In this document: positions 4,255 to 23,184 of the stretch, piece after piece
Layout: each line of letters starts with the position of its first letter
Numbering within the stretch: the first letter of the stretch is position 1
Virus record (IMG/VR): IMGVR_UViG_3300043410_000414
Span: 1 to 25,896 of that record
Direction: 5' to 3' (one strand)
Length of the DNA: 25,896 bases
From: a virus
Made by a program: the position numbers and the translations under genes
Notes under the pieces: model-generated
Databases searched by the model: none
Told to the model about the DNA's origin: nothing
Seen by the model: the letters and a program-made list of their open reading frames with translations, nothing else

Positions 4255-4412
4255 TTGTCGCACACTTGATTGATTCGGTCAGCTTCCCAGCCAACCTTGA
4301 TTGCTTCCAACCGGCACTGACTTTTATGATATTCGTGAAGGGCCATGCCTGCCATTGGCACGCCAAACACAAACATAAAAATCAGCGCCGCCCATTTCAT
4401 TTCAGTGTTCAT
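4251..4412 (-). CDS. Very small membrane protein, 53 aa
   Basis: The frame runs from an ATG at 4412 to a TGA at 4251. It exactly fills the space between the VWA gene and the next membrane-protein gene, with ATGA overlaps at both ends, which is strong evidence that it is translated. The protein has one transmembrane helix at about residues 7-25 (WAALIFMFVFGVPMAGMAL), then a short charged tail with two cysteines (QCRLEAIKVG and NQVCDK). Function unknown. It is short enough to be missed by length-filtered gene callers. Confidence 0.8.
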   Translation of the reverse strand: MNTEMKWAALIFMFVFGVPMAGMALHEYHKSQCRLEAIKVGWEADRINQVCDK

Positions 4413-5698
4413 TTTTTACCCTTTGCGGCTTCCTCGTAGTGTGCCCACACACCAAACGGTGGTTCGCAACCTGGGTTGCCTTTGATGATCCAGCATACAT
4501 CGCAGTACTCTTCCTCACCCCACTCACCAAAGGGCATACCGTCAGTGAACATAACAAACTTCTTGGGCTGGATATCGTTTTCTTTCATCCAACGATAGTT
4601 AGCCATAAAGTCAGTACCACCGCCACCTGCAGGTTGATACTCTGCAATGTCGCTTAGGTTTTCACTGGTGAACACCTGTGGGTTGTAGATGTCTGTGTCA
4701 AAGCACCATACATGGATCTTGTACTCATCGTAGGATTCCATGATGCCTTTGATCTCAGCCATGAAGTCCTTGATATCACGTTCGCTGATTGAACCTGAAG
4801 TGTCGATAGCAACACAGATGTCAATCTGTGTACCGGGCAACATACCAGGCATAACAGCATCCATGTGCCAGCCGCGTCGGCTAGGCTTCATCCAAGTAAA
4901 GTCACTCTTGATAGTGCTCTGGATCTGTTGCTCCAGCAGAGTGCGCCAGTCAATAACAGGCTCAGTCAAGTCCTTGATTAGACGCTTGACGCCTGCAGGC
5001 AAGTTGCCTGCGCCTGTTTGGTTAGCGGCATTGAGTACAGCTTCGCGAATCTCGTCACGGATCTGTTGCTTTTCTTCTTCACTGAGTTGCGGACGGCCAC
5101 CTTTCTTGTTGCCGTCTTCGTCCTCTCCATCGCCGTCGCCATCGCCGTTGCCATCCAAGTGCTCGTCTAGCAATTGGTCAATCAGCTGGTCCAGGTTAAT
5201 CTTCTTGACGTTCTTCATCAAGTCGTCATAGATCTCTTCAGAGCTCATGCCACGATACTTTGGATCGTACAGCATGGGCACCACGTTGATGCGTTCACCA
5301 ACCTTTTGATCAACCAAGTCTGCGTTAACAGCAAAGTCGTTGGCTACGTTAAAAATCTGCGGATCGCGATCGCCTCTACGACCCATGTGGTCGTAAACAG
5401 CGTGAAGCACTTCGTGTCCAACAAGAAACTCCAACTGTTTAGCAGGCAGTTTTTCAATGAACAGGGTGTTGTAATAGAAGTTGCGACCATCGGTTGCCGC
5501 AGTAGGGCACCAGTCGTCGGCATTGATCAACTTCATGCGAGTTGCAAGGTTACCAAAGAAAGGAGCCTTGAGCAAGAGTGCAATACGAGCAGTGATCAGT
5601 TTTTCGCGAACAGCATTGTCGCGAGCTTGATTAAACTCAATCTTGGGGAGTTCTTTCTTCTTAACTTTTTCGTTTAGAGTGGTATCTTTGGCTGACAT
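4409..5698 (-). CDS. VWA-domain metallopeptidase-like protein (CobT/DUF2201-like)
   Basis: 429 aa. The N-terminal part carries a zinc-peptidase-type HEVLH motif (95-99, in LVGHEVLHAVYDH). An acidic Asp-Gly linker (about 182-196) follows. The C-terminal von Willebrand A domain has the MIDAS motif DTSGS (299-303), GGGGTDF (358-364) and FTDG (384-387). Proteins of this build work with MoxR/CobS-type AAA+ ATPases, and such an ATPase is encoded directly upstream. The likely role is a partner that binds a substrate for ATP-driven remodelling; proteolysis is possible but unproven. AAGGAG lies 5 nt before the ATG, and a promoter precedes it (5722-5751). The target is unknown. Confidence 0.92.
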   Translation of the reverse strand: MSAKDTTLNEKVKKKELPKIEFNQARDNAVREKLITARIALLLKAPFFGNLATRMKLINADDWCPTAATDGRNFYYNTLFIEKLPAKQLEFLVGHEVLHAVYDHMGRRGDRDPQIFNVANDFAVNADLVDQKVGERINVVPMLYDPKYRGMSSEEIYDDLMKNVKKINLDQLIDQLLDEHLDGNGDGDGDGEDEDGNKKGGRPQLSEEEKQQIRDEIREAVLNAANQTGAGNLPAGVKRLIKDLTEPVIDWRTLLEQQIQSTIKSDFTWMKPSRRGWHMDAVMPGMLPGTQIDICVAIDTSGSISERDIKDFMAEIKGIMESYDEYKIHVWCFDTDIYNPQVFTSENLSDIAEYQPAGGGGTDFMANYRWMKENDIQPKKFVMFTDGMPFGEWGEEEYCDVCWIIKGNPGCEPPFGVWAHYEEAAKGKK

Positions 5699-5767: not shown

Positions 5768-6889
5768 TTAGCTCTTGTCGCGAGCACTTGCGGCCAAGAT
5801 GTACTTACCAAAACGCTTGTGGAACTCGTCGAAGTTCTTGAGCTTGTTGGGAATCAACGGCAGGTTGTAGGTAGTGAGTGCAATACGAGAACCCATAACC
5901 ACCAACTCAGTGTTGAAATTGTCCATCATGTACTTCAAGAAGTTGTCAGCAAATGGATGCCATTTGTCCAACTCTGCCTTGTCGCCTTTGCAAGCGATGA
6001 AACGTTCTTGCAAGGTGTAGCACAGGCTAACAGCCAAGGAGTACTGAGCTGACACTTCCTTGGTGTCCAAGGTAGTAACCTTGCCAGACAACACGTCATC
6101 TGGCTTGGGCATCTTGCCTGCAACCTTACGGTGTGCCATAAACTTGATGGCAATACCTTCACCCACAGTACCTGCAATCAGGTTAGTGAGTTCGCCGTCG
6201 CTGATGCCTTCGTCTTCACAGAACTGTGATACGAAGCTCCAAGAACGTGGAGTAGCAAAGGTGCGGCTTGCAGAGCGTGGATCAAAGTCGTACAGGTCCT
6301 GCTTGGCAAAACCAATGTAACCAACCACGTCCTTGTGAATTTTATTGTTCACAGCCCATTGTTCCCAAGAACCGTGATCCACACGCAACTCCTGGTGAAC
6401 AAAACGGTTGGCAAGCGGAGTAGGCATACGGAAGGTAACACCCTTATCGCTTTCACGGTTACCAGCGGCAACCATAACCACGTTTGCAGGCAACACATAC
6501 TTGCCCACACGGCGGTTCAAGATAAGTTGGTATGCGGCTGACTGCACAGCAGGAGGTGCAGAGTTCATCTCGTCCAAGAATAGAACGATCACTGGATACT
6601 GGCCGGCCAGTTCTTCATCAGGCAAATCAATAGGAGGAGCCCAATCCATCTTGCCTAGGTCTTTGTTAAAGAATGGAATACCACGGATGTCTGTGGGTTC
6701 GCATTGACCTAGTCGCAAGTCAATCATAAAGCCACCGAGCTCTTCGGTAATGCTTGCTACCAGTTCGGATTTACCAATGCCGGGAGGACCCCAAAGAAAG
6801 ATAGGGCGTTGATTTTTGAAACAGCTAAGGATACTCTTACGTGCCTCAACTGCGGTGATAGTGCGATTTTCGCTAGTCTGTGCCGCCAT
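5768..6889 (-). CDS. MoxR/CobS-like AAA+ ATPase
   Basis: 373 aa. Walker A GPPGIGKS (34-41), Walker B VIVLFLDEMNSA (100-111), sensor-1 asparagine in VAAGN (140-144) and an arginine-finger-like R162 in PTPLANRFVH. This is the build of MoxR/CobS-type ATPases, which remodel or load protein complexes together with VWA-domain partners; that partner is the next gene. T4-like marine phages are known to carry CobS/MoxR-like ATPases, generally of unproven role. AGGAG lies 6 nt before the ATG, and the gene has its own promoter (6936-6964). The C-terminal 150 residues are helical with no motif I recognise. Confidence 0.93.
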   Translation of the reverse strand: MAAQTSENRTITAVEARKSILSCFKNQRPIFLWGPPGIGKSELVASITEELGGFMIDLRLGQCEPTDIRGIPFFNKDLGKMDWAPPIDLPDEELAGQYPVIVLFLDEMNSAPPAVQSAAYQLILNRRVGKYVLPANVVMVAAGNRESDKGVTFRMPTPLANRFVHQELRVDHGSWEQWAVNNKIHKDVVGYIGFAKQDLYDFDPRSASRTFATPRSWSFVSQFCEDEGISDGELTNLIAGTVGEGIAIKFMAHRKVAGKMPKPDDVLSGKVTTLDTKEVSAQYSLAVSLCYTLQERFIACKGDKAELDKWHPFADNFLKYMMDNFNTELVVMGSRIALTTYNLPLIPNKLKNFDEFHKRFGKYILAASARDKS

Positions 6890-7279: not shown

Positions 7280-7297
7280 AATTACTATAGAGTAATT
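7280..7297. repeat. 18-bp dyad at the start site of the 92-aa gene promoter
   Basis: AATTACT and AGTAATT arms (7280-7286, 7291-7297) around ATAG. It overlaps part of the -10 box and the expected start site, a position typical for a repressor operator. Confidence 0.5.
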
Positions 7298-7323
7298 GTA
7301 GCAAAAAGGGCCAAAACGGTCAA
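7295..7323 (-). promoter_or_regulatory. Sigma-70 promoter for the 92-aa gene
   Basis: Minus strand TTGACC (7323-7318), 17-nt spacer, TACAAT (7300-7295) with TG-C just upstream (extended -10). It starts only 2 nt after the U-run of the preceding terminator. Confidence 0.88.
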
Positions 7324-7325
7324 CC

Positions 7326-7354
7326 AAAAAGTGTTGCATTTCTGCAACACTTTT
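7326..7354 (-). terminator. Rho-independent terminator after the three-gene DGQHR cassette
   Basis: Perfect 12-bp arms (7327-7338 and 7343-7354, core GTGTTGCA/TGCAACAC), 4-nt loop, ending in a run of U on the minus strand, 5 bases after the stop of the 140-aa gene. The best terminator in the window. Confidence 0.88.
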
Positions 7355-7358
7355 CTGC

Positions 7359-7781
7359 TTAAAAATCAAGCACAATATGGCCCATGGCAATGTTTATTGC
7401 ACACATCAACCTATCACGGTTGCGCCAACCAAGCCTACCTAGTTCATAATATTTCAAGTTGAAGGTTTTACGAACTTTGGTCTTGTTGCTGGTTACCTGC
7501 ACACGTTGCCAGCTACCACTTTCAAAGGTATAACGACCGTGGGCGTTTTTAAGGCTCCACTTGTTGCTCATTTCTTTGTCAGCACCAACTGTGTCAAATT
7601 TGACTGTTTCGGCAAGTGCGCGGTTGGTCTTGGCTTCCTCAGTTTTCTGGGCACGGTCAATATGACCACCTAGACTTACCAGATCCTTGCCAGTCAATCC
7701 CATCAATTGACACCACTGTAGTAAGCCTTCTAGTTGTTCATGTTTTGCTTTGTCAAATCGTTTTAATCGGTTTAGGTCCAT
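7359..7781 (-). CDS. Hypothetical protein, third gene of DGQHR cassette, 140 aa
   Basis: Unknown. From the chosen ATG (7781; GGAG 6 nt upstream) the protein starts with a charged helix (MDLNRLKRFDKAKHEQLEGLL). It has a lysine/arginine-rich C-terminal half (TSNKTKVRKTFNLKYYELGR, then GWRNRDRL) compatible with nucleic-acid binding. A longer frame upstream would overlap the previous gene by 68 nt and lacks a ribosome site, so I reject it. It lies 1 nt after the EHVIP-containing gene and just before a strong terminator. Confidence 0.82.
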   Translation of the reverse strand: MDLNRLKRFDKAKHEQLEGLLQWCQLMGLTGKDLVSLGGHIDRAQKTEEAKTNRALAETVKFDTVGADKEMSNKWSLKNAHGRYTFESGSWQRVQVTSNKTKVRKTFNLKYYELGRLGWRNRDRLMCAINIAMGHIVLDF

Positions 7782-7782
7782 A

Positions 7783-8337
7783 TTAGACTCCAAATTTTTC
7801 AAAGTGATCGCCAAGTGTCCAAGTACCTGGGTCTGTGATCTCTTCTCCATTATATGTTACAAATTTTGTATCGTCAAACATTTCGTAGCGTTTGAAAAAA
7901 TTCCAGTAGTCAGGACTTGAACTAACATGTCCTTCCTCACGTAGGATTTCGTCATTGCGCTTGCTGATAAGACACGTGGGTGTATTAAGAGCCTGCTTCA
8001 CAGTCAAGATACCTTGCAACAGCATGTCACGCACCTTGGCGGCAGGTATCACATGCTCAAACACACAATTGGCCTTGTCAACACCTACTTCAGTGTAGTG
8101 AGCGCCAATACTGCCTTCGATTGCATAGCCGTGATAACGACGGATCCAGTGATCAATGTCATCACGCAATAGTCGTGCAGTCTGCCCAACCTGTTGCAAT
8201 TCTTTGTATTCAGCAACCAAAATATTCAGTTTCTTTACTGTAAGCTCAAAAGTTTCCTTATAACTTTTGTCACCACGTTGCACACGGCTGTATGTAACAG
8301 GACTGAAGCTTTCCACTAGTTTCTGTAGGTCGCTCAT
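7783..8337 (-). CDS. Hypothetical protein with possible HNH-like motif, 184 aa
   Basis: Unknown. The segment CVFEHVIPAA (about 91-100) followed by LNTPTCLISKRND (about 117-129) recalls the His...Asn...His layout of HNH nucleases (E/D-H-x-x-P, then N, then a C-terminal K/N). The zinc CxxC pairs and the last histidine are not clear, so this is only a suggestion. The ATG at 8337 shares its A with the upstream TGA, and AAAGGA stands 5 nt before it. An in-frame GTG one codon earlier is less likely. It is the middle gene of a three-gene unit. Confidence 0.82.
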   Translation of the reverse strand: MSDLQKLVESFSPVTYSRVQRGDKSYKETFELTVKKLNILVAEYKELQQVGQTARLLRDDIDHWIRRYHGYAIEGSIGAHYTEVGVDKANCVFEHVIPAAKVRDMLLQGILTVKQALNTPTCLISKRNDEILREEGHVSSSPDYWNFFKRYEMFDDTKFVTYNGEEITDPGTWTLGDHFEKFGV

Positions 8338-9392
8338 CACAGTCCTTTCACAGCAGGCTTAACTGCATCACAGATGTTACTCTTGTCAGCAATGCCAATC
8401 TCATGTCCTTTGAAGGGCAGAGTTAATTTGCCGCCATGCAGTTTGTAGATCTCGCGGATAAACTTGGCCGCACCGTCTGGCGCACTCCAGTTGCCTACCA
8501 CGTGAGTCCATTGTGCCTTGGCCATGTCGTGTGCTACGTGACTGCTACCAAATGACTTGGCTACTTCTTTGAGCACTGACTTCATCCAACCCTTGGGCTG
8601 AGTGATGCACATTTCTTTGCTCCAGTTGTTCAACTGCCACATGCCAATGAACATACCTTGATCAATCTCTTCGTTGTCAGGCCACGCTGATTTAATAGCG
8701 TCAAGAATATTGTGCAATGTTTCACCGCTGGCATCTTGTTTGATGCCCTTGTATGCATAGTCAAAGTGACTGAACCAATATTTGTTGGCCCCGCATTGAG
8801 CAGGATTGTTGCGCTTGGCTGACTCTTGCAAGTCAATCTTAAGAACGTCAAACTGGTCTTGCAGTTTACGAGCTTCAATGTTGGCTTTGTCTTCACTGCC
8901 TTTTGAAAACAGATTCAAACGAATGCGATGCAGATCTGGCTTACCAATTTTCTTAACGCCGCTGTCGTTGAGGATTTCAAATGCGTGGCTGGCAAAACGC
9001 TCGTCCTCAGTTTCTACATAACATGCAGGAATTGAAGCATAGCCTAGAATTGCCATGGCAATGGTACGATGCTGGCCATCATAGGCATAGTAACGATTAG
9101 GAAACTTGCTCTTGGGCAGACGTACACACGAAGCCGCACCAACAATGCGTGGGTCAAATTTGCGGATGATGTTGAGTACATGTTTAACAATGACGTCACG
9201 CTGGACTTCATAGTCAATCCACATGTCATTGATATTTAATAGAGCAAGCCCAATTGGGAATCCGTAGCCGCTTGCCTTAATACGTGCCTTGTGTTTGTCA
9301 AGTTCCTTGTCAGTCAGGCCGTATTTCTCTTTGAGTTCATTGTGAACTTCTTGAGCGACCTCAACTACAAGACGCGAAATTCGCTTGTTCAT
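8337..9392 (-). CDS. DGQHR/ParB-like domain protein
   Basis: 351 aa. The N-terminal half has the ParB/Sulfiredoxin-like layout: DYEVQRDVIVKHVLNIIRKF (60-79), strand VGAASCVRL, then YYAYDGQHRTIAMAILGY with DGQHR at 105-109. In the ParB superfamily this corresponds to the nucleotide-binding signature; DGQHR-domain proteins such as DndB act with DNA-modification systems, and others bind or cut DNA. The C-terminal 200 residues have no motif I recognise. It leads a three-gene operon with its own promoter (9442-9470) and GGAG before the ATG. A role in DNA binding, partitioning or modification is inference. Confidence 0.88.
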   Translation of the reverse strand: MNKRISRLVVEVAQEVHNELKEKYGLTDKELDKHKARIKASGYGFPIGLALLNINDMWIDYEVQRDVIVKHVLNIIRKFDPRIVGAASCVRLPKSKFPNRYYAYDGQHRTIAMAILGYASIPACYVETEDERFASHAFEILNDSGVKKIGKPDLHRIRLNLFSKGSEDKANIEARKLQDQFDVLKIDLQESAKRNNPAQCGANKYWFSHFDYAYKGIKQDASGETLHNILDAIKSAWPDNEEIDQGMFIGMWQLNNWSKEMCITQPKGWMKSVLKEVAKSFGSSHVAHDMAKAQWTHVVGNWSAPDGAAKFIREIYKLHGGKLTLPFKGHEIGIADKSNICDAVKPAVKGL

Positions 9393-9417
9393 TGAGCTTC
9401 TCCATTAAGTTGTTGAA

Positions 9418-9435
9418 TGTGCTAATATCAGCACA
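9418..9435. repeat. Dyad at the start site of the DGQHR promoter
   Basis: TGTGCT/AGCACA arms (9418-9423, 9430-9435) with a 6-nt spacer. It begins at the position expected for +1, so it would be either an operator or a 5'-end hairpin of the message. Confidence 0.5.
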
Positions 9436-9441
9436 AAGACA

Positions 9442-9470
9442 AGTATAACACCGTTTGGGTATTTGGTCAA
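9442..9470 (-). promoter_or_regulatory. Sigma-70 promoter for the DGQHR cassette
   Basis: Minus strand TTGACC (9470-9465), 17-nt spacer, TATACT (9447-9442), with TG-T upstream of the -10. It lies in the 125-base gap between genes; the leader is about 43 nt and carries GGAG. Confidence 0.88.
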
Positions 9471-10566: not shown

Positions 10567-10579
10567 TGCTAGTATAGCA
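10567..10579. repeat. Short dyad over the -10 box
   Basis: TGCTA-GTA-TAGCA, 5-bp arms around the -10 of the promoter at 10571-10599. Possibly an operator, but short enough to be partly a by-product of the TG-C extended -10 sequence. Confidence 0.3.
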
Positions 10580-10599
10580 TATAGGAGAATAAAGGTCAA
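10571..10599 (-). promoter_or_regulatory. Sigma-70 promoter for the 161-aa gene
   Basis: Minus strand TTGACC (10599-10594), 17-nt spacer, TATACT (10576-10571) with TG-C upstream (extended -10). The -35 overlaps the stop codon of the preceding gene. Confidence 0.87.
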
Positions 10600-15964: not shown

Positions 15965-16350
15965 GACATTTCGGTTCTGCCATTACCAAGATCTCGGCGG
16001 TTGATAACACGTTCGCCAGTTTGGTTAGCTTCCCATTGTTCAAAGTTTTCCATGACCACATTTCGGCAAATATCCTGGAACCAACGTTCTACAATCTGTT
16101 GGTCATCCTTGCCACTGTAGCCTGCCTTGACCAACTTGGCAACAAAGAACTCGTTCCAGTCTAGCTCAAATGCACCATTGCCTGGGTTGTCTTCTTCTAA
16201 TTCAACGTTGATAACTGCCACATAAGGTTCTTTCTTCTTAGTGGCAATTTCCTTGGGATTCTTGGCCTTGGCTTTGACTGTCACGGTTTTAGCCGCGACA
16301 GTTTTTTTAGCAGGTGCTTTTTTAGCTGGCGCTTTTTTTGCGGTAGCCAT
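15961..16350 (-). CDS. Protein with histone-H1-like basic tail, 129 aa
   Basis: Residues 2-30 are Ala/Lys/Pro repeats (ATAKKAPAKKAPAKKTVAAK) like the tails of histone H1 and bacterial Hc1/AlgP-type proteins, suggesting DNA or RNA binding. The acidic, folded part (about 47-129) has strands VAVINVELEEDN and a helix QIVERWFQDICRNVVM; I do not recognise it. The ATG at 16350 overlaps the queE stop (TAATG), with GGGG about 7 nt upstream. A longer frame would start inside queE. A role in genome packaging or condensation is inference. Confidence 0.83.
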   Translation of the reverse strand: MATAKKAPAKKAPAKKTVAAKTVTVKAKAKNPKEIATKKKEPYVAVINVELEEDNPGNGAFELDWNEFFVAKLVKAGYSGKDDQQIVERWFQDICRNVVMENFEQWEANQTGERVINRRDLGNGRTEMS

Positions 16351-17243
16351 TATTTGCCCCAGCCATTGCCCCAAAGGTCAACGTGCAAGCGAGGACTGTA
16401 GTTGTATCCTAGCTTGAGTGCCATGTCAGCAACTTCCTTCTTGTTAATATCATACAACTCAGTGGTACCACCAACTGGCATGATATACACTTCACCCATG
16501 AAGCCTGCTCTGCGATAGTCGTCAACAGCTTGTTGAACTTCTAACATGCTGTCTTGTGAGCTTACAACAAACTTCAAGTATGTAACACCATACTGTTGAT
16601 ATTGAGCAACAACTTCTGGCTTGATTGCATCTTCACGCTTTTCTCCGCTGGAGCTCAACTTTGGACTAACACTGAATTGCATTTCACGGAAACGTCCGAT
16701 GTACTTTTGATGATCATCTTCATTAATACCGCGCCATTCAGTGTGCCATGCTTCAATAACTTCGCAGAACTCTTCGCTGAGTTCCTGAGTACCATTTGTT
16801 TCAAAGGTGATATTGTCAAGACCAATCATGCCTGGATGTGACAACAGTTCAGGATAAAATTTCTGCCAGCCTAGCAACGGCTCGCCGCCAGTGATAACAA
16901 GATGCACATTGTTACCAGTGAACTGACGCCAGTTACCGTTGGGAGTATTTTTCAACAGCTCTCTAACAACTTCATGTACATCCATGGTTGGACTTAGATC
17001 TTTGAAACGTGGATCCCAACTTGCATAGCTGTCGCATCCAGTATGTACCAATGGCAGTTCTGCAAATGTTTTGTATTTGCTAGGCTCAACCAATCCTCGT
17101 TCTTTACTGGTCTCACCTAGTGGCATACCAAACCCACCACAGGTAAAATTACAACCAAATGTGCGTAAAAACACACTAGGTACACCTACATAACGTCCTT
17201 CGCCTTGTAGGCTGTAGAAGATTTCGCTGACTTTAAGTTTCAT
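16350..17243 (-). CDS. queE: 7-carboxy-7-deazaguanine synthase, divergent radical SAM
   Basis: 297 aa. QueE turns 6-carboxytetrahydropterin into 7-carboxy-7-deazaguanine with SAM and a 4Fe-4S cluster. Visible: FYSLQGEG (9-16), typical of QueE; GCNFTC (30-35); TGGEPLL (118-124); ETNGTQ. Cluster cysteines appear to be C31, C35 and C70 (in HTGCDSYASWDP), a C-x3-C-x34-C spacing instead of the usual C-x3-C-x2-C. The insertion (about 36-69) includes GMPLGETSKERG. AAGGA precedes the ATG, which overlaps the epimerase stop (ATGA). It acts after QueD, encoded 1.3 kb upstream; the product would feed preQ0 for DNA or tRNA modification. Confidence 0.92.
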   Translation of the reverse strand: MKLKVSEIFYSLQGEGRYVGVPSVFLRTFGCNFTCGGFGMPLGETSKERGLVEPSKYKTFAELPLVHTGCDSYASWDPRFKDLSPTMDVHEVVRELLKNTPNGNWRQFTGNNVHLVITGGEPLLGWQKFYPELLSHPGMIGLDNITFETNGTQELSEEFCEVIEAWHTEWRGINEDDHQKYIGRFREMQFSVSPKLSSSGEKREDAIKPEVVAQYQQYGVTYLKFVVSSQDSMLEVQQAVDDYRRAGFMGEVYIMPVGGTTELYDINKKEVADMALKLGYNYSPRLHVDLWGNGWGK

Positions 17244-18106
17244 AGTATTTCCTTAGATATTTTATTGTATAGCATTTCAAAGTTGTCGTCTAGCCACTGA
17301 TCTACCGTTTGTGGTTTCCAGTCTGGCAAGACCGATAATAGTTTATTTAGGTTTGCACCGTTCTCCCACTGATATTTTTCAATCATGTGTTCGGGCATAG
17401 GAGCAATGACAACCTGTGCGTTTTCTATGCCCACACGCTTTTGTATCAGTTTAGCAATGTCTTCAAAGGTCAATTGATGACCACTGCCAATGTTGTACAC
17501 ACCGCTGACTGCTTTGTCTTTGAGTGCAAGCATGCCTTTAATACAATCGTCTACGCTGATAAAGTCACGTAGACCCATGCGTCCATTGTGATGCCATACT
17601 GTTAGCTTGCGTGTGGTGATAGCACTTTCAATGTATCTGCGTATAGGACTGGGTTGATTCTTGTGTCCTTCGTTGCGTCCGTACACATTGAAGAAACGCA
17701 TGCCTTGTACAGGAACACTGAATTCTTGTTCAGCACACCACATGTCAATGGTGATCTTGCTCACACCATATGGATGTTGTGGTTGGAAAGGCCCCCATTC
17801 TGGACTGTTTGACCAAGGTCCATATACACTAGCTGAACTTGCATAGGTAATACCGCAGTTGTGTAATTCAGCGAAACGAATCCAGGCCTGGGTGTCTTCA
17901 ATGTTTTTTCTAACCAGTGCGTCCCAATCAAACACATTGGTCTCACTGATTGCCCCCATGTGAAAAATCCACTCAATGGGTTCTGTGGCTGTCCAGGTTT
18001 TGCCTCGATCAGCCCAGTCAAGGCTGTGTACATTATAGCCTTGATCTATCAAATGCTTTTTAAGCTCGCTTCCTATGAAGCCACGATCACCGGTTACTAT
18101 TATCAT
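17240..18106 (-). CDS. NAD-dependent sugar epimerase (HldD-like)
   Basis: 288 aa, extended short-chain dehydrogenase fold. Gly-rich GDRGFIG (6-12), SSASVYG (90-96) and the catalytic YGVSK (113-117). The motif GAISETNVFDWDALV is like ADP-L-glycero-D-manno-heptose 6-epimerase (HldD/RfaD), an enzyme for the LPS inner-core heptose. Substrate is not certain: other nucleotide-sugar epimerases share this layout. The ATG at 18106 overlaps the HIT-gene stop (ATGA); longer in-frame starts were rejected. The cytidylyltransferase at 19777 and GalE upstream point to sugar-nucleotide work. Confidence 0.9.
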   Translation of the reverse strand: MIIVTGDRGFIGSELKKHLIDQGYNVHSLDWADRGKTWTATEPIEWIFHMGAISETNVFDWDALVRKNIEDTQAWIRFAELHNCGITYASSASVYGPWSNSPEWGPFQPQHPYGVSKITIDMWCAEQEFSVPVQGMRFFNVYGRNEGHKNQPSPIRRYIESAITTRKLTVWHHNGRMGLRDFISVDDCIKGMLALKDKAVSGVYNIGSGHQLTFEDIAKLIQKRVGIENAQVVIAPMPEHMIEKYQWENGANLNKLLSVLPDWKPQTVDQWLDDNFEMLYNKISKEIL

Positions 18107-18540
18107 CTTTCTTCGTCCAACCAAGGCCACGTTCCCGCTGGTGCCGTTCTATAGTTGCCACGGCCCGGAATTGTATGTCGTACACCGCCCACCGGATCCT
18201 CGACGTCGCCCTTGCGACGGGGAATAAGATGGATGTGAGGCCACGGCACAGTTTGACCTGCAGCCTCGCCATAATTAAATCCAATGTTGAAACCATCCCA
18301 CTCACCTTCAAATACTTTCTGTTGTCCAAAATCAAATGCATCAGCGAACGCATCTCTTAATACATGTTTGCTATTCTGTTGTGGTACAAACAGCATGTGA
18401 CCAGGTGTGCAAGGATACTTGTCTAGGTATACTGCAACATGAAAATCTTGTCTAACTGTGTTGTCCCACGGAGCCGAGGATCCTGCATCGGCTTTTTCAT
18501 AGGGAATAGTATCAAAGATGCGTTCGTCTTGTAATGGCAT
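18103..18540 (-). CDS. HIT-family hydrolase/transferase
   Basis: 145 aa. The C-terminal block AGQTVPWPHIHLIPRRKGDV holds the HIT motif with H102 and H104, while the first histidine of the HxHxH triad is W100. H102 would be the nucleophile by position. After it comes DVEDPVGGVRHTIPGRGNY, as in the Ap4A-hydrolase branch; FNIGFNYGEAAGQ precedes it. The enzyme could cleave dinucleoside polyphosphates or nucleotide-phosphoramidates, or transfer nucleotides in the neighbouring sugar/deazapurine pathway. AAGGA lies 6 nt before the ATG, 3 nt after the queD-like stop. Confidence 0.9.
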   Translation of the reverse strand: MPLQDERIFDTIPYEKADAGSSAPWDNTVRQDFHVAVYLDKYPCTPGHMLFVPQQNSKHVLRDAFADAFDFGQQKVFEGEWDGFNIGFNYGEAAGQTVPWPHIHLIPRRKGDVEDPVGGVRHTIPGRGNYRTAPAGTWPWLDEER

Positions 18541-18543
18541 AGA

Positions 18544-19089
18544 TTATCCTTCGTAGATTGCAGAGTTGCCGCTGTGTTCAAATACTTCAACAGTATACAG
18601 TTTAACACGCTGATGCTCATCGCCTAGCAAGTTTTTATATACGTTGGTTGGATCTGAGCGCAACCAATGCGCCACCCAATCATAAACATATTCAGCAAAT
18701 GCTTCACAACCCACAGCAGGCAGTGTTACCAAATTGACAACACCTTGTGATCCGACTGGGTGTGCTTGAACGTCTTCGGGTTTTCCGTTGAGTTCTGAAT
18801 TCGCACTCCAACCGGCCATTGCCTGGAACTGCTCAAGGAGTGGATCGTCTTGGGCAATGACCATGGTGTGATCAAAGGTTTTCTCAAGGAATGCTTTAAC
18901 ATCGTCTAGACCTCCAAAGTCTTGTACCCAGTTGCGTTCATCTAGTTCATCTGCTTCAAATGTTAAGCGAAAACCTAGACTGTATCCATGTAGCAAACTG
19001 CAATGCGAGTGTGTGGCTTTCCATTGTCGGAAACAACAGGAAAGCCCACGATCGTTGCCATAGGTTTTTGTACTAAAACGACGTGCCAT
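18544..19089 (-). CDS. queD: QueD-like 6-carboxytetrahydropterin synthase, copy 1
   Basis: 181 aa, 6-pyruvoyl-tetrahydropterin synthase superfamily. Landmarks: SHCSLLHGYS (28-37) with C30 at the catalytic-cysteine position and H34; Y36 stands where the second His of the canonical HGH zinc motif is expected. Then WVQDFGGL (54-61) and DHTMVIAQDDP with D73-H74. The C-terminus has VEVFEHSGNSA, where the substrate-binding glutamate would be E. QueD makes 6-carboxytetrahydropterin for queuosine-type bases. A promoter (19120-19148) precedes it, and GGAG lies 8 nt before the ATG. HIT, epimerase and queE follow in one operon. Confidence 0.88.
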   Translation of the reverse strand: MARRFSTKTYGNDRGLSCCFRQWKATHSHCSLLHGYSLGFRLTFEADELDERNWVQDFGGLDDVKAFLEKTFDHTMVIAQDDPLLEQFQAMAGWSANSELNGKPEDVQAHPVGSQGVVNLVTLPAVGCEAFAEYVYDWVAHWLRSDPTNVYKNLLGDEHQRVKLYTVEVFEHSGNSAIYEG

Positions 19090-19119
19090 TGAAAATCTCC
19101 AAAGAGTTGTTGAAACAGT

Positions 19120-19148
19120 ATAATACTACGAAATCGTTTTAGTGTCAA
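19120..19148 (-). promoter_or_regulatory. Sigma-70 promoter for queD copy 1
   Basis: Minus strand TTGACA (19148-19143), 17-nt spacer, TATTAT (19125-19120). The -35 overlaps the stop of queD copy 2. AGTAT-T-ATACT (19118-19128) forms a small dyad over the -10. Confidence 0.85.
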
Positions 19149-19696
19149 GCAAAAAGATCTTCTTTCCACTCGCGATGACCTTCTCGGAAAGCCATGTTGC
19201 TCTGTGTTTCACGTACTTCCACACGATAGCACCAAAGACGCTTGCTTTCATGCTCGCCCCACATTTCCGGAATGTACACACCATTTACATATTTGTACAA
19301 TTGGTCTGCCAGGCTTTCGCATCCTAGGCTGTGAAGTACAATGATCTTGGCCATGTTCTTTTCTTGTAGCAATCGGAATGTTTCCATTTCTGGATCATCG
19401 TGTGCAACGATCAAGGTATGGTCAAATTGATCTTCCAAGAACTTTTTAAGCTCTTTGAGTCCGCCGTAGTCTGCGGCCCAATTGCGAGCATCCAGATTGT
19501 CTGTGCCAAAGTAAAACTTCATACTGAATGAATAACCATGTATCAGGTTGCAATGGCTGTCTGCTCGCCACTGACGATATGCACATGGAAATGCATCGTG
19601 GTATTCTTTGGTGCTGGTGTATTTGTATTGCACTGGATGACGTACATACTGTCTGTAGTCGTTGCTTACGTTTTCGTAATTAAAATCGTCTGACAT
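19145..19696 (-). CDS. queD: QueD-like 6-carboxytetrahydropterin synthase, copy 2
   Basis: 183 aa, paralogue of the next gene: shared RQW-(K/R)-A-SHC-x3-HGYS (C49, H53, Y55), AADYGGL (74-80) and FDHTLIVAHDDP with D92-H93, then VEVRETQSNMAFREG at the end. The second His of HGH is again Tyr. It has a longer N-terminus (about 30 residues) than copy 1. Only one QueD step exists in preQ0 synthesis, so the pair may form a hetero-oligomer or one may act on another pterin. AGGAG lies 7 nt before the ATG, and part of it is in a hairpin (19706-19724). Confidence 0.87.
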   Translation of the reverse strand: MSDDFNYENVSNDYRQYVRHPVQYKYTSTKEYHDAFPCAYRQWRADSHCNLIHGYSFSMKFYFGTDNLDARNWAADYGGLKELKKFLEDQFDHTLIVAHDDPEMETFRLLQEKNMAKIIVLHSLGCESLADQLYKYVNGVYIPEMWGEHESKRLWCYRVEVRETQSNMAFREGHREWKEDLFA

Positions 19697-19705
19697 GCTG
19701 ATTCT

Positions 19706-19724
19706 CCTATGTTATTAGCATAGG
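19706..19724 (-). promoter_or_regulatory. Hairpin overlapping the ribosome site of queD copy 2
   Basis: CCTATG/CATAGG arms of 6 bp (19706-19711, 19719-19724) with a 7-nt loop. The downstream arm includes the first bases of the AGGAG site, so folding would hide it. The rest of the 80-base gap holds only a poor -10-like TATACA and AGCGG/CCGCT arms; I see no convincing promoter. Confidence 0.4.
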
Positions 19725-19776
19725 CTGGCAGAGTTTGTATAGCGGGATGAAGCCAAAAGACCGCTTAAAAGAATAT

Positions 19777-20265
19777 TTACCGTGCGCTAGGACCACCAGT
19801 GTCATCACTGCCCACAGGGTCTGGTCCTAGTTTCTTCTTGAAGTCTTCTGCAAAGGCTACACGCTGGCGTAGCTCACTGGAACTGAAACTGTGATCACGT
19901 CCGTTGAAATATAGATCAATGCCGCGCTTGTGACAGATCTCGCGTCCTGTAAACTCTTTGCCTTCGTATTCTACACCAAGGATACGCACATCAATTGGCA
20001 GAATAAGCAATAGGTCTTCAAGGTCTTTTTCTGTGTTGTAGACCCATACTTCGTCTACATACTTGCAACCTACCAGTTGCAGTTGTCTTTCAACAATGCT
20101 TTGCACAGGTTTGTTCTTGCTAGGACGATCCAGTGTAGGATCATTCTGTAGCGCACAAATCAAGTATTCGCAGTGTTCTTTGGCCTCACGCAACATAGCA
20201 ATATGTCCTGCGTGAAGTAAATCAAATGTTGATGCTGTAAAGCCTACTTTTTTTCCGTTGATCAT
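19777..20265 (-). CDS. Cytidylyltransferase-like nucleotidyltransferase
   Basis: 162 aa. HxGH-type motif HAGH (18-21, in TFDLLHAGHIAML) and a C-terminal SSSELRQR (128-135) like the ISSTxLR motif of glycerol-3-phosphate, ethanolamine-phosphate and heptose-phosphate nucleotidyltransferases. The chemistry is NTP plus phosphorylated substrate to NDP-substrate. With the HldD-like epimerase 1.7 kb downstream, an HldE-type adenylyltransferase role is an attractive inference; CDP-glycerol or FAD-synthase-like roles are not excluded. The ATG at 20265 overlaps the upstream stop (ATGA). The C-terminal 25 residues are Gly/Pro/Asp-rich and probably disordered. Confidence 0.88.
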   Translation of the reverse strand: MINGKKVGFTASTFDLLHAGHIAMLREAKEHCEYLICALQNDPTLDRPSKNKPVQSIVERQLQLVGCKYVDEVWVYNTEKDLEDLLLILPIDVRILGVEYEGKEFTGREICHKRGIDLYFNGRDHSFSSSELRQRVAFAEDFKKKLGPDPVGSDDTGGPSAR

Positions 20266-20837
20266 TTTTCCCACCATTGTTCCCATGGAAATTCAATCCA
20301 GCTGGGTTCTTCATGTTTGTTAATAATTAGTCCTGAATAGTCCACGGTCTTAAATTCACTGGCCTGATTGTCAACAATGCAAGCAAAGCGAACTGTGTTA
20401 TTCCAAATTTTATCCCACTCGGGGTTTTGTGGCAAGCAACCGCTGGGCCAATCTTCTTTGATCCAGTTCAGTGTACGACCTGTGTCGTTGATGTCATCTA
20501 CAATGAGAATCTTTTTGCGTGTTGCAGGATCGCTACGAGTAGGATCTGTGCCATCTGCAACTTCATGTGAGTCTACACTTACATAACCAAAGGCATCTTC
20601 TGCCATCCATAGATTGCTTTCTGGGCCTAGGTCAGCATCTCGAAAACTGATGTTCAAGGTGTGCAGTGGAACGTCCATGTACTGGCTGATCATCACAGCA
20701 GGGATCAGGCCACCGCGTGTGATACCTACAATGTAGTCTGGGCGCCAGTTTTCAACTGCCATCTGACGCATGATATTGTGAACATATCCATTGAGTTGTG
20801 TGTGGTCAATGGTGATAATTTTATTGGGAGTAGTCAT
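20262..20837 (-). CDS. Phosphoribosyltransferase (type I)
   Basis: 191 aa. PRPP-binding loop ILIVDDINDTGRTL (110-123) and an N-terminal substrate loop GITRGGLIP (38-46), as in Gpt/hypoxanthine-type phosphoribosyltransferases. C-terminal EEPSWIEFPWEQWW is often seen at the end of this subgroup. It would salvage purines (or other bases) to nucleotides, which could serve dNTP supply or a deazapurine base made by the neighbouring pathway. Start ATG at 20837 overlaps the upstream gene by 17 nt, with only a weak ribosome site. Confidence 0.9.
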   Translation of the reverse strand: MTTPNKIITIDHTQLNGYVHNIMRQMAVENWRPDYIVGITRGGLIPAVMISQYMDVPLHTLNISFRDADLGPESNLWMAEDAFGYVSVDSHEVADGTDPTRSDPATRKKILIVDDINDTGRTLNWIKEDWPSGCLPQNPEWDKIWNNTVRFACIVDNQASEFKTVDYSGLIINKHEEPSWIEFPWEQWWEK

Positions 20838-21159
20838 AGTCTGGTACTTTACAATCGTGGTTGATAATAGCTTCTGGGAACTTTAACATGAACAAACTGG
20901 CTTCTGGTGCAAACTCTTCACGAAGATGTATGATATAACCACTGTTGTCATTGAACTTGTGACTCCAGTCGCTGTGCTTGCCCATGCGTATACGATAACT
21001 TTTCTCGTTAACTTGCTTGTGGCGTGTCCAATGCTCGTCGGTAATCTCTTGTGCTTCAGCACCCATCATGACCCAGAAGTCCACCATCTCTTGTGAGAGA
21101 GCATTGGTATGGATCTTAAACGGACGAAGTGCTACTACGCCGGGAGAGATAACTTTCAT
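20821..21159 (-). CDS. Hypothetical protein, 112 aa
   Basis: Unknown. Alpha/beta pattern with conserved-looking HWTRHKQVNEKSYRIRMGKH and a beta hairpin DNSGYIIHLREEF, ending in an acidic tail (DCKVPDYDYSQ). GGGAA precedes the ATG at 5 nt. The start overlaps the cupin gene by 44 nt, the longest overlap in the window; no better internal start was seen. Confidence 0.78.
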   Translation of the reverse strand: MKVISPGVVALRPFKIHTNALSQEMVDFWVMMGAEAQEITDEHWTRHKQVNEKSYRIRMGKHSDWSHKFNDNSGYIIHLREEFAPEASLFMLKFPEAIINHDCKVPDYDYSQ

Positions 21160-21586
21160 TGTGTTCCCATTTTTGATTTTTGCCCTTGCCTGTTAGAAAG
21201 CCCCATTCACGAGTATGAGGACCAGGCATGAACAAGGTCCATGCAGTTACACCAGGTTTGAGCTCAATACGATGAAAAGACTCAGGGCGACAAATGCGGA
21301 AATGTCCGGGCCCACGCCAGTGACAAATCTCGCCAATTTTTGTGCCAAGACTATTAAACTCTGGAACCCATTCATAGTATCCGCCTTTCAAGATCAATGT
21401 TGCATATGGCCAAGGATGATCATGTACATCATCCGGATCACCTTTTAGAAACTTGTGTAAAAATACATTGAACGGGAACTTCTTGCGTTCTTTCAAAAAC
21501 AGGTAATAACGTTCCAAATATGGTTCGTTATTAATCCTATCATAGATAATGCGCTTGCGTCCCAGACGTTCAAGTAATTTTAACAT
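21116..21586 (-). CDS. Cupin-fold protein
   Basis: 156 aa. Cupin motif 1 is seen as GDPDDVHDHPWPYATLILKG (49-68) with H55 and H57, followed by GGYYEWV. The second half has GPGHFRICRPESFHRIEL with H105, and then TLFMPGP. Metal ligands of the type 2-His plus one His fit cysteine-dioxygenase-like cupins. No substrate can be named; sugar-modifying isomerase or dioxygenase roles are both possible. Common in phage genomes, in my memory without a defined function. AGGA lies 8 nt before the ATG; the ends overlap both neighbours (17 and 44 nt). Confidence 0.85.
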   Translation of the reverse strand: MLKLLERLGRKRIIYDRINNEPYLERYYLFLKERKKFPFNVFLHKFLKGDPDDVHDHPWPYATLILKGGYYEWVPEFNSLGTKIGEICHWRGPGHFRICRPESFHRIELKPGVTAWTLFMPGPHTREWGFLTGKGKNQKWEHNESYLSRRSSTSSV

Positions 21587-22151
21587 TCTTTGTTCCTACA
21601 GATGAGCCTCGGTAGTTGGATTTTAACAGATCATCCACACGTTCTGCAATCTTTTCGGACGCATTGTTTGGTGGATCGTATGCATAGCTGGTAGTACTTT
21701 TTGCTACAGCACTATCATTGGCTAGACTGATGCTGGTTGCACTGGTACTGGTGCCGCACCAAATTTGATTTGGTCCAGGTCCAGGCCAGCCGCCCGTGCC
21801 TGTTCCAGGGATAGGTGTAGTGGGGGCAGGCTGAGGCCAGATAGTTGGACTTGGGCTAATAACAGGGCCGTATGGTGCCGAAGGATTGTAGCCTCCGTTC
21901 CTCCAACCTGCATTGTTAACTTCAAGTCTTTCCAACCTCCGAAGGATTTCGTGTTGATCATCAAACATGCGGCGTAGTGGGCCATTGCGGCGATCATGTT
22001 TGTCGTGATTACGTGCCAACGCACAAATAACCATCAGATGCTGTAGTGTCTTTTGTACACTGGGATCGTCGCTGGTAAGTGCTTCGTCGAACAGGTCGAT
22101 AAACGCTTCTAAATCAAAATCTGCTGAATCTTTTTCTCTTGCGGCGCTCAT
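21570..22151 (-). CDS. Hypothetical protein with Pro/Gly-rich linker, 193 aa
   Basis: Unknown. Residues 1-80 are helical and charged (DFDLEAFIDLFDEALTSDD; HEILRRLERLEVNN), suggesting a dimeric helical domain. Residues about 87-130 are Pro/Gly/Thr-rich (SPSPTIWPQPAPTTPIPGTG) and must be flexible. The C-terminus is Ser/Asn-rich. The layout is like an adaptor or structural linker; no catalytic motif. AAGG precedes the ATG, which overlaps the upstream stop (ATGA). Confidence 0.82.
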   Translation of the reverse strand: MSAAREKDSADFDLEAFIDLFDEALTSDDPSVQKTLQHLMVICALARNHDKHDRRNGPLRRMFDDQHEILRRLERLEVNNAGWRNGGYNPSAPYGPVISPSPTIWPQPAPTTPIPGTGTGGWPGPGPNQIWCGTSTSATSISLANDSAVAKSTTSYAYDPPNNASEKIAERVDDLLKSNYRGSSVGTKNVKIT

Positions 22152-22399
22152 AGGTCATCACCTTCCTCTAAATGTCGAATCCATGAATCAACTTGTGATT
22201 CAGCTTCCTCGCGTGTCATGCAATGCACAGTGGCAGTTAAACGACCTTCGCGATTCATTTTAAGATCAAATGGCACAACACCTGCGCTGAAGATAAGATC
22301 AGGATCATCTAAGTGACGTGTGATTTGAAATGTTTGCATGGTGCGAGCTTTTTCAATAAGCTCATTGGCCATAACGGCCGCTGTTAGACTTGGGTTCAT
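22148..22399 (-). CDS. Hypothetical small protein, 83 aa
   Basis: Unknown. N-terminal helix (MNPSLTAAVMANELIEKART), then a beta pattern (DPDLIFSAGVVPFDLKMNRE, LTATVHCMT) and a C-terminal acidic helix (EEAESQVDSWIRHLEEG). ATGA overlaps on both sides, directly after folE. Confidence 0.8.
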   Translation of the reverse strand: MNPSLTAAVMANELIEKARTMQTFQITRHLDDPDLIFSAGVVPFDLKMNREGRLTATVHCMTREEAESQVDSWIRHLEEGDDL

Positions 22400-23184
22400 C
22401 TTGGGGCAAACTCCTGTTGTAATTTGATATTATCAAAGAACTCTTTCTTAACGCCTGCATCAGATCTGAATACACCGTTAAGCACAGTGGTCTGTGTTAG
22501 ACTACTGTGTGCCATAATGCCACGATTCTCACAGCAACCGTGTGTGGCTTGAATATACACCGCTACATTTTGCGAATTAGTTGCTTTGCTAATCTCTCGG
22601 GCAATGTCGTTACAAAGTTCCTCCTGGAGAGTACCTCGTCTTGCACACCACTGTGCAATGCGTGTGTACTTGGAGAGTCCGATGAGTTTCTCAGCAGCCA
22701 AAATGCCAATATAAGCAACGCCAGTAACGGGTTGGTGATGATGGCTACACATACTGCGAAGCTCACTACGAACAACCAACATACCTTCATAACGGTCCTG
22801 CGTGTCGTTTGGAAATGCTGTTGCACTTGGTCCTGGTTCATATCTTCCTGCCATTATTTCATTAAAGTACATCTTAGCAAGACGGCGAGCTGTACCCTTG
22901 CTATTAGGATCGTTTTCACGATCAATCAACAGTCGATCTAGAACAGTTTCAAATGCTTCTGTTGCTTCGTCAATTAGTTGAGCTTTAACATGATCGTTGT
23001 CAATGTATTCGCTGATGTTGTCACCAGCCCAGAACCGCTTACCATCACGTTTCATTTTTGCACGAAGATAGTTACCTAGATACTTTTCTTCTTGGTAACC
23101 ACCGTCGCCTGCCATGGCATCTAACGCTGTTTCGTTATCATGTGGTTCTGGATCGTTACTAATATATGCTTTTTCGTATACCAT
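22396..23184 (-). CDS. folE: GTP cyclohydrolase I
   Basis: 262 aa. FolE converts GTP to dihydroneopterin triphosphate, the first step of both folate and 7-deazaguanine (queuosine-type) synthesis. Zinc ligands are at their expected places: C146 and H149 in MCSHHHQPV, C217 in THGCCENRG (with H215). ARRGTLQEELCNDIAREI matches the conserved helix. About 110 residues precede the usual catalytic core, longer than in E. coli (222 aa); the extra stretch (1-70) is acidic and helical. GGAG lies before the ATG, and the gene has its own promoter (23224-23252). QueD-like proteins and QueE lie downstream. Confidence 0.96.
   Translation of the reverse strand: MVYEKAYISNDPEPHDNETALDAMAGDGGYQEEKYLGNYLRAKMKRDGKRFWAGDNISEYIDNDHVKAQLIDEATEAFETVLDRLLIDRENDPNSKGTARRLAKMYFNEIMAGRYEPGPSATAFPNDTQDRYEGMLVVRSELRSMCSHHHQPVTGVAYIGILAAEKLIGLSKYTRIAQWCARRGTLQEELCNDIAREISKATNSQNVAVYIQATHGCCENRGIMAHSSLTQTTVLNGVFRSDAGVKKEFFDNIKLQQEFAPR

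What the first reader, a model, noticed from the sequence alone, without database searches (positions are those of the whole stretch)
7326..9470. Self-contained three-gene cassette with a DGQHR/ParB-like protein
A strong promoter, the DGQHR protein, a protein with an EHVIP...NTPTCL...K possible HNH-like pattern, and a basic third protein, closed by the best terminator in the window. DGQHR-domain proteins are associated with DNA modification or partition systems; combined with a possible nuclease this could be an undescribed DNA-processing, counter-defence or host-degradation module. Functions are inferred.
Basis: partly seen in the sequence, partly recalled or inferred. Interest (0 to 1): 0.6.

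Follow-up and report, generated by a model that had tools for sequence, protein, structure and literature searches.

The report
Phage-borne ParB-like plus HNH nuclease pair
Two neighbouring genes in this virus of bacteria encode a nucleotide-binding switch protein and a DNA-cutting protein that look like a very distant, phage-carried version of the bacterial GmrSD/SspE restriction enzymes, so phages seem to carry a kind of weapon known mainly from the bacteria that use it against them.

Summary
The three minus-strand genes exist, but the unit that holds together elsewhere is the first two. g1 (8337-9392) has a ParB/sulfiredoxin fold (VIA Z 9.6 to ParB) with the three marks of DGQHR domains (QR, D-x-Q, FxxxN) invariant in 98/98 homologs. 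g2 (7783-8337) is an HNH-type nuclease by motif: E94-H95 invariant (113/113), N118 in 111/113, and position 129 is only H, D or N. Its predicted secondary structure (pLDDT 94) matches the pattern published for GmrD. In an unbiased scan from g1, 100 of 104 phage loci carry g2 within three genes; the other four end at a contig edge. About half hold an extra, variable gene, often nuclease-like, between the two; about a quarter are followed by a putative DNA-modification gene. A separate ParB-like family with the same core is followed by an HNH-type gene in 23/23 loci. g3 is a backbone neighbour. Neither Pfam model of GmrSD recognises the pair, and no g2 was found in the bacterial genome collection. 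I read it as a phage-encoded, NTP-gated HNH nuclease that works like GmrSD/SspE. Its target, and how the phage spares itself, are unknown.

The parts
8337..9392 (-). g1: ParB/Srx-fold protein (351 aa) of the DGQHR type; predicted NTP-binding sensor/switch subunit
   Evidence: AlphaFold model (pLDDT 71) matches ParB, KorB, Noc, sulfiredoxin and SerK with VIA Z up to 9.6 over 92 aa at rmsd 2.2; Q64-R65, D105, Q107, F138, N142 invariant in 98/98
9066..9080 (-). DGQHR motif of g1 (residues 105-109); QR pair at 9203-9198 and F138xxxN142 at 8981-8967
   Evidence: motifs that define DGQHR/GmrS domains in PMC4619093; conservation
7783..8337 (-). g2: HNH-type nuclease by motif (184 aa), near-obligate partner of g1
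   Evidence: [quoted passage not shown] E94-H95 113/113, N118 111/113, position 129 H65/D41/N7; Pfam HNH_4 weakly hits 17 of 62 homologs, best E 0.0083
8053..8058 (-). E94-H95 of g2, predicted metal ligand and general base
   Evidence: the comparable E582-H583 of GmrSD2 is needed for restriction (PMC12373910)
7984..7986 (-). N118 of g2, predicted middle residue of H-N-H
   Evidence: 111/113, two cysteines
7951..7953 (-). D129 of g2, predicted third (metal-binding) residue; H in most homologs
   Evidence: only H, D or N in 113 sequences
9442..9470 (-). sigma70-like promoter TTGACC-17-TATACT upstream of g1
   Evidence: consensus match only
7321..7356 (-). intrinsic-terminator-like hairpin after g3 (may work in both directions)
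   Evidence: -17.6 kcal/mol, z -5.0
7359..7781 (-). g3: basic 140-aa protein, probably co-transcribed neighbour; probably not part of the system
   Evidence: no family match; not beside g2 in L002/L030 and separated from g2 in L009 and L011

Best explanation
g1 and g2 form one two-subunit DNA-attacking enzyme that works like the bacterial GmrSD, BrxU and SspE restriction enzymes. Shown by computation: the folds or motifs, and an almost unbroken genetic partnership. Inferred: g1 binds and hydrolyses a nucleotide at its ParB/DGQHR pocket and reads some state of DNA, and its NTP cycle licenses g2, an HNH nuclease, to nick or cut DNA with H95 as general base and E94/D129 holding the metal. The target is inferred to be DNA that is not the phage's own (host chromosome or a rival phage). 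In some relatives a neighbouring modification enzyme could mark self DNA, and an exchangeable extra nuclease between g1 and g2 could widen the attack. In the window's own lineage no such modification gene was found, so a type IV-like attack on DNA that carries a foreign modification is equally possible there.
For: ParB/Srx fold of g1 by structure comparison and all three DGQHR-domain motifs invariant in 98/98, as described for GmrS (PMC4619093). [quoted passage not shown] EH invariant, N in 111/113, third position only H/D/N; weak Pfam HNH_4 hits in 17 of 62 homologs. Scan anchored on g1 alone: 100 of 104 loci have g2 within three genes, the rest end at a contig edge. Distances in the two families run in parallel: Mantel r 0.91 over 80 non-redundant pairs, 0 of 2000 permutations. 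The g1 subtype and the third HNH residue change together: R109 with H (67) or D (7), T109 with D (15) or N (9). A second ParB-like family with the same core (hhalign 96.8%, E 2.7e-10) is followed by an HNH-type gene in 23/23 loci, and in L103-L105 that pair sits in the slot that g1-g2 fills elsewhere. The slot swaps with ordinary restriction-modification genes. SspE gives an experimental precedent: DGQQR GTPase domain gating an HNH nickase (PMC9646914).
Against: No significant Pfam, NCBIfam, PHROG, PADLOC or PDB sequence match for either window protein. No solved or viral structure resembles g2 as a whole, and profile comparison of g2 with HNH families fails, so the HNH call rests on motif, order of elements and context. 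A quarter of the g1 homologs read D-(A/G)-Q-H-T, without the arginine that SspE needs for GTPase activity. Some loci pair g2 with another nuclease-like gene and no g1. About three quarters of loci have no adjacent modification gene of the two kinds sought, so self-protection is unexplained. Nothing was tested in the laboratory.
Confidence: 0.7

Rival explanations
1. g1 and g2 belong to a DNA-modification machine rather than a nuclease: g1 acts as DndB/DpdB do beside modification enzymes, g2 is an accessory factor of the ABC-ATPase/GNAT protein or of the methyltransferase that often follows, and the variable gene is the restriction part.
For: g2 is directly followed by the ABC-GNAT gene or a SPPY methyltransferase-like gene in many loci; g2 also occurs with nuclease-like genes and no g1; DndB, a ParB-superfamily protein, is known beside modification genes.
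Against: The E-H-N-(H/D/N) pattern is that of an HNH active site; 73 of 97 pairs have no such gene within three genes; the ABC-GNAT protein also occurs without g2; the window's relatives carry neither.
Confidence: 0.13
2. g1 and g2 control or restrain the variable nuclease that lies between or beside them, as immunity or targeting subunits; pairs without that gene, as in the window, are remnants or act on a nuclease encoded elsewhere.
For: 49 of 97 pairs hold one or two variable genes in between; about ten of 49 such genes tested carry recognisable HNH domains and others look like PD-(D/E)XK or GIY-YIG nucleases; loci lacking g1 keep a nuclease-like gene plus g2.
Against: Half of all pairs have no such gene, and the window's pair is under strong purifying selection; HNH-like catalytic residues would be unnecessary.
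Confidence: 0.1
3. g1 is a partition protein (true ParB) and the cassette serves plasmid-like maintenance of the phage.
For: Best structural matches are ParB, Noc and KorB.
Against: The match covers only the shared NTP-binding core (92 residues); no ParA-like gene was noticed nearby; DGQHR, QR and FxxxN are marks of DGQHR/GmrS domains.
Confidence: 0.03

Closest known systems
GmrSD / BrxU type IV restriction enzymes (DUF262 + DUF1524)
   Same: ParB/Srx-fold NTPase part with D-G-Q-(Q/H)-R, QR and FxxxN plus an HNH part with (E/D)H-x-x-P ... N ... N/H; sometimes two genes; same order of parts; same order of secondary-structure elements in the nuclease core
   Different: no detectable DUF262 or DUF1524 sequence match; g2 has a longer spacing between N and the third residue than the published motif; carried by phages, no g2 found in 84,980 bacterial and archaeal species genomes with this scan; often holds a variable gene inside the pair
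SspE (phosphorothioate-sensing effector)
   Same: DGQQR NTPase domain gating an HNH nickase; SspE is among the weak structural matches of g1 (Z 3.0, 22% identity over 94 aa)
   Different: single polypeptide, tied to SspABCD phosphorothioation genes; none noticed here
DndB / DpdB DGQHR proteins
   Same: DGQHR domain, ParB-like fold, sits near DNA-modification genes
   Different: partner is an HNH-type protein; no dnd genes noticed beside the pair, and no TGT-type transglycosylase found in nine relatives
Jumbo-phage Mom/REase and ABC-ATPase-GNAT systems (PMC7824862)
   Same: phage-encoded nuclease linked to a predicted acyl-type base modification; an ABC-GNAT gene follows g2 in many loci
   Different: nuclease part is a ParB-like/HNH pair rather than a fused REase

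Membership tests
GmrSD (DUF262 + DUF1524) family | matches PF03235 (GmrSD_N) and PF07510 (GmrSD_C) | tested here: not met
   hmmscan of window proteins and of homologs in A3, A4 and A8: neither family among the listed matches up to E 1; no match in five to seven relatives' genomes while controls ring
GmrSD (DUF262 + DUF1524) family | ParB/Srx fold with DGQ(Q/H)R, QR pair and FxxxN | tested here: met
   fold; motifs: (the final R is T in 24 of 98 homologs, kept in the window)
GmrSD (DUF262 + DUF1524) family | HNH domain with (E/D)H-x-x-P, N, and N/H in beta-alpha-alpha-beta-alpha context | tested here: met
   spacing between N and the third residue is 11, longer than in the published LGNLxLLxxxN
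GmrSD (DUF262 + DUF1524) family | NTP-dependent cleavage of modified DNA | not testable with these tools
   needs biochemistry
HNH / His-Me finger endonucleases | conserved H-N-H/N/D residues on a beta-beta-alpha metal fold | tested here: inconclusive
   residues met and elements in the right order; no structural or profile match to a known HNH; weak HNH_4 hits in 17 of 62
ParB/sulfiredoxin superfamily | ParB/Srx fold of the NTP-binding core | tested here: met
   VIA Z 9.6, rmsd 2.2, 92 aligned to 7bnk; many ParB/Srx entries; model pLDDT 71
Partition ParB | ParA partner and parS-binding HTH | not tested
   no ParA-like neighbour noticed while reading the neighbourhoods, but no ParA profile or parS search was run
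DndB (PF14072 / TIGR03187) | match to the curated DGQHR/DndB models | tested here: not met
   no match of g1 in Pfam or NCBIfam up to E 1

The most novel reading that the evidence does not exclude
Large phages carry an undescribed class of modular DNA-attack system: a constant ParB-type NTPase and HNH nuclease pair that acts with an exchangeable third nuclease held between them and, in some, with its own base-modification enzyme. It would be used for phage-phage or phage-host warfare at a genomic slot where complete restriction-modification systems also swap in and out.
Probability: 0.35. Interest if true: 0.8.

Novelty: new variant of a known kind. Interest (0 to 1): 0.6.

Why it matters
GmrSD and SspE are known as bacterial weapons against phages. 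A diverged phage-borne counterpart, present in some 200 viral contigs but absent from curated family libraries, from the cultured-phage records searched and (for g2) from the bacterial genomes scanned, would mean that large phages wield the same logic, against hosts or rivals. It also gives a likely function to two families that the libraries leave unnamed, and a compact, testable two-gene system.

Tried and rejected
Sequence look-ups of the window proteins in Pfam, PHROGs, NCBIfam, PADLOC, PDB and the cultured-phage collection gave nothing usable. Foldseek of g2 against PDB and BFVD gave no significant match, and VIA only matched the helix pair 16-78. hhalign of g2 against two HNH families was not significant. 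A link to 7-deazaguanine DNA modification through a DpdA-like transglycosylase was considered, because queuosine-type genes seem to lie in the window, but no TGT match was found in nine relatives; the other modification genes sought in the window's relatives were also absent. A PHROG label 'HNH endonuclease' on the gene at 4409-5698 was set aside: Pfam shows a DUF2201 metallopeptidase/VWA protein. A shared C-terminal LFE tail on some variable nucleases was noted but not used. The idea of a three-gene unit was dropped after g3 proved separable.

Full report
WHAT IS THERE. The finding covers three genes read on the minus strand: g1 (8337-9392, 351 aa), g2 (7783-8337, 184 aa) and g3 (7359-7781, 140 aa). 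g1 and g2 overlap at TGATG, and g2 and g3 are one base apart, so they are probably one transcript. A sigma70-like promoter lies at 9470-9442 and a strong hairpin with a T/A tract at about 7321-7356. Against the two nearest relatives g1 and g2 show dN/dS of 0.03-0.11, so both are maintained genes. No curated family, solved structure or cultured phage gives a significant match to g1 or g2 by sequence.

g1. An AlphaFold model from 22 sequences (mean pLDDT 71) matches the ParB/sulfiredoxin fold over residues 48-146: ParB of Myxococcus at Z 9.6 (92 residues, rmsd 2.2), and Noc, KorB, sulfiredoxins, free serine kinase and, weakly, SspE. In 98 sequences the QR pair, D105, Q107, F138 and N142 never change. 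These are the three marks that Machnicka et al. give for DGQHR domains and for GmrS (PMC4619093). The final R of DGQHR is kept in the window and 73 others, and is T in 24.

g2. Its model has mean pLDDT 94. The core reads helix 52-76, strand 91-95, helices 99-107 and 113-117, strand 121-125, helix 126-134, the same order that was predicted for GmrD. In 113 sequences E94, H95 and P98 are invariant, N118 holds in 111, and position 129 is H (65), D (41) or N (7) and nothing else. A free choice among H, D and N at exactly one place in the last helix is what an HNH metal ligand allows. In a bacterial GmrSD the comparable E and H are needed for phage restriction (PMC12373910). Weak Pfam HNH_4 hits appear in 17 of 62 homologs. 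Fold and profile searches do not confirm it, so I call it HNH-type by motif.

THE PARTNERSHIP. A scan anchored on g2 found 55 viral loci and none in 84,980 species genomes of bacteria and archaea. Scans anchored on g1-type proteins alone found 25 and 197 loci, of which 105 were listed and 104 new loci analysed. Of these 104, 100 have g2 within the next three genes, and the other four stop at a contig end. Among 97 full pairs, 48 are directly adjacent and 49 hold one or two genes in between; 24 are followed within three genes by an ABC-ATPase/GNAT gene (13) or a SPPY methyltransferase-like gene (11). Distances within the two families correlate at r 0.91 over 80 non-redundant pairs (0 of 2000 permutations), and subtype R109 of g1 goes with H or D at 129 of g2, subtype T109 with D or N. 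Shared descent of the phages contributes to that correlation.

A SECOND PAIR OF THE SAME KIND. Upstream of the ABC-GNAT gene in L103-L105, in the slot where g1-g2 sits elsewhere, lies a different ParB-like protein with NDAQHR and a 193-aa protein with a readable HNH motif (DHIVPRSKGG...NFQVLPAILN). That ParB-like family is followed by a protein of this HNH type in 23 of 23 loci, and its core is homologous to g1 (30% identity over 99 aa; hhalign 96.8%). The pairing of a DGQHR-type ParB protein with an HNH nuclease is thus repeated in phages.

THE NEIGHBOURHOOD. In other relatives the place of g1, or the gap between g1 and g2, is taken by varied small genes: HNH proteins (Pfam HNH_3 in ten of 49 tested), and others that look like GIY-YIG or PD-(D/E)XK nucleases (the last two classes by eye, except single T5orf172 and MUG113 hits). 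Loci with the ABC-GNAT gene but no g2 often carry ordinary restriction-modification genes instead: Eco57I-type, D12 and other adenine methylases with helicase-like or nuclease-like partners. Published work predicts base acylation for such ABC-GNAT proteins in jumbo phages and reads linked nucleases as weapons on host or rival DNA (PMC7824862). Records related to the window's lineage (54 to 355 kb) have one g2 each and none of the modification genes sought, apart from the ABC-GNAT gene in the records that carry it beside g2; they may be incomplete.

g3. Its homologs sit beside g2 in several relatives but not in L002/L030, and lie elsewhere in L009 and L011. I treat it as a neighbour.

HOW IT MOST LIKELY WORKS. 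SspE offers the tested model: DNA state is sensed, the DGQQR domain hydrolyses GTP, and this releases an HNH nickase (PMC9646914). GmrSD offers the two-gene layout. I infer that g1 is the NTP-driven sensor and g2 the nuclease. Which DNA is attacked, which nucleotide is used and how the phage spares itself are unknown. Where a modification gene follows, self-marking is a natural guess; in the window's lineage an attack on foreign-modified DNA fits as well.

MEMBERSHIP AND NOVELTY. The pair is not a member of the GmrSD Pfam families by sequence, but it shares their fold (g1), motifs, order of parts and partnership. I class it as a new variant of a known kind. I found no paper that describes it, but the library holds only open-licence papers.

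Noticed in passing
L103:4327-5998 and L140-L163: A second phage family of ParB-like (NDAQHR) protein is followed by an HNH-type gene in 23 of 23 loci; the ParB-like protein has no Pfam match.
   Followed up: partly
L081-L138, gene labelled F4 (e.g. L060:6570-7631): An ABC-ATPase/GNAT gene (phrog_11143, unknown function) marks a slot where many restriction-modification modules swap; predicted DNA-base acylation is untested.
   Followed up: partly
variable genes between g1 and g2, e.g. L201:5053-5607, L215:4992-5564, L242:1491-1934: Several unrelated variable nucleases, and some methyltransferases in the same slot, end in a short tail like FNxLFE; 6 of 46 by a strict pattern against 7 of 763 other proteins. 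It could be a docking or sliding-clamp-binding tail.
   Followed up: no
window 268-23252, e.g. 9442-9470, 7295-7323, 10571-10599: A promoter-like motif TTGACC-17-TAYAMT on the minus strand occurs 7 times with at most one mismatch against 0.5 expected.
   Followed up: partly
window 16350-23184: Genes that look (by eye) like QueE, two QueD-like proteins and a FolE-type GTP cyclohydrolase suggest 7-deazaguanine synthesis, but no TGT-type transglycosylase was found in nine relatives.
   Followed up: partly
window 4409-5698 and 5768-6889: A DUF2201 metallopeptidase/VWA protein beside a MoxR-like AAA ATPase; PHROG labels the first 'HNH endonuclease', which Pfam does not support.
   Followed up: no
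L202 and L262 (g2 homologs): The most diverged g2 homologs (29% identity) have cysteine instead of N118, so they may be inactive or use another residue.
   Followed up: no
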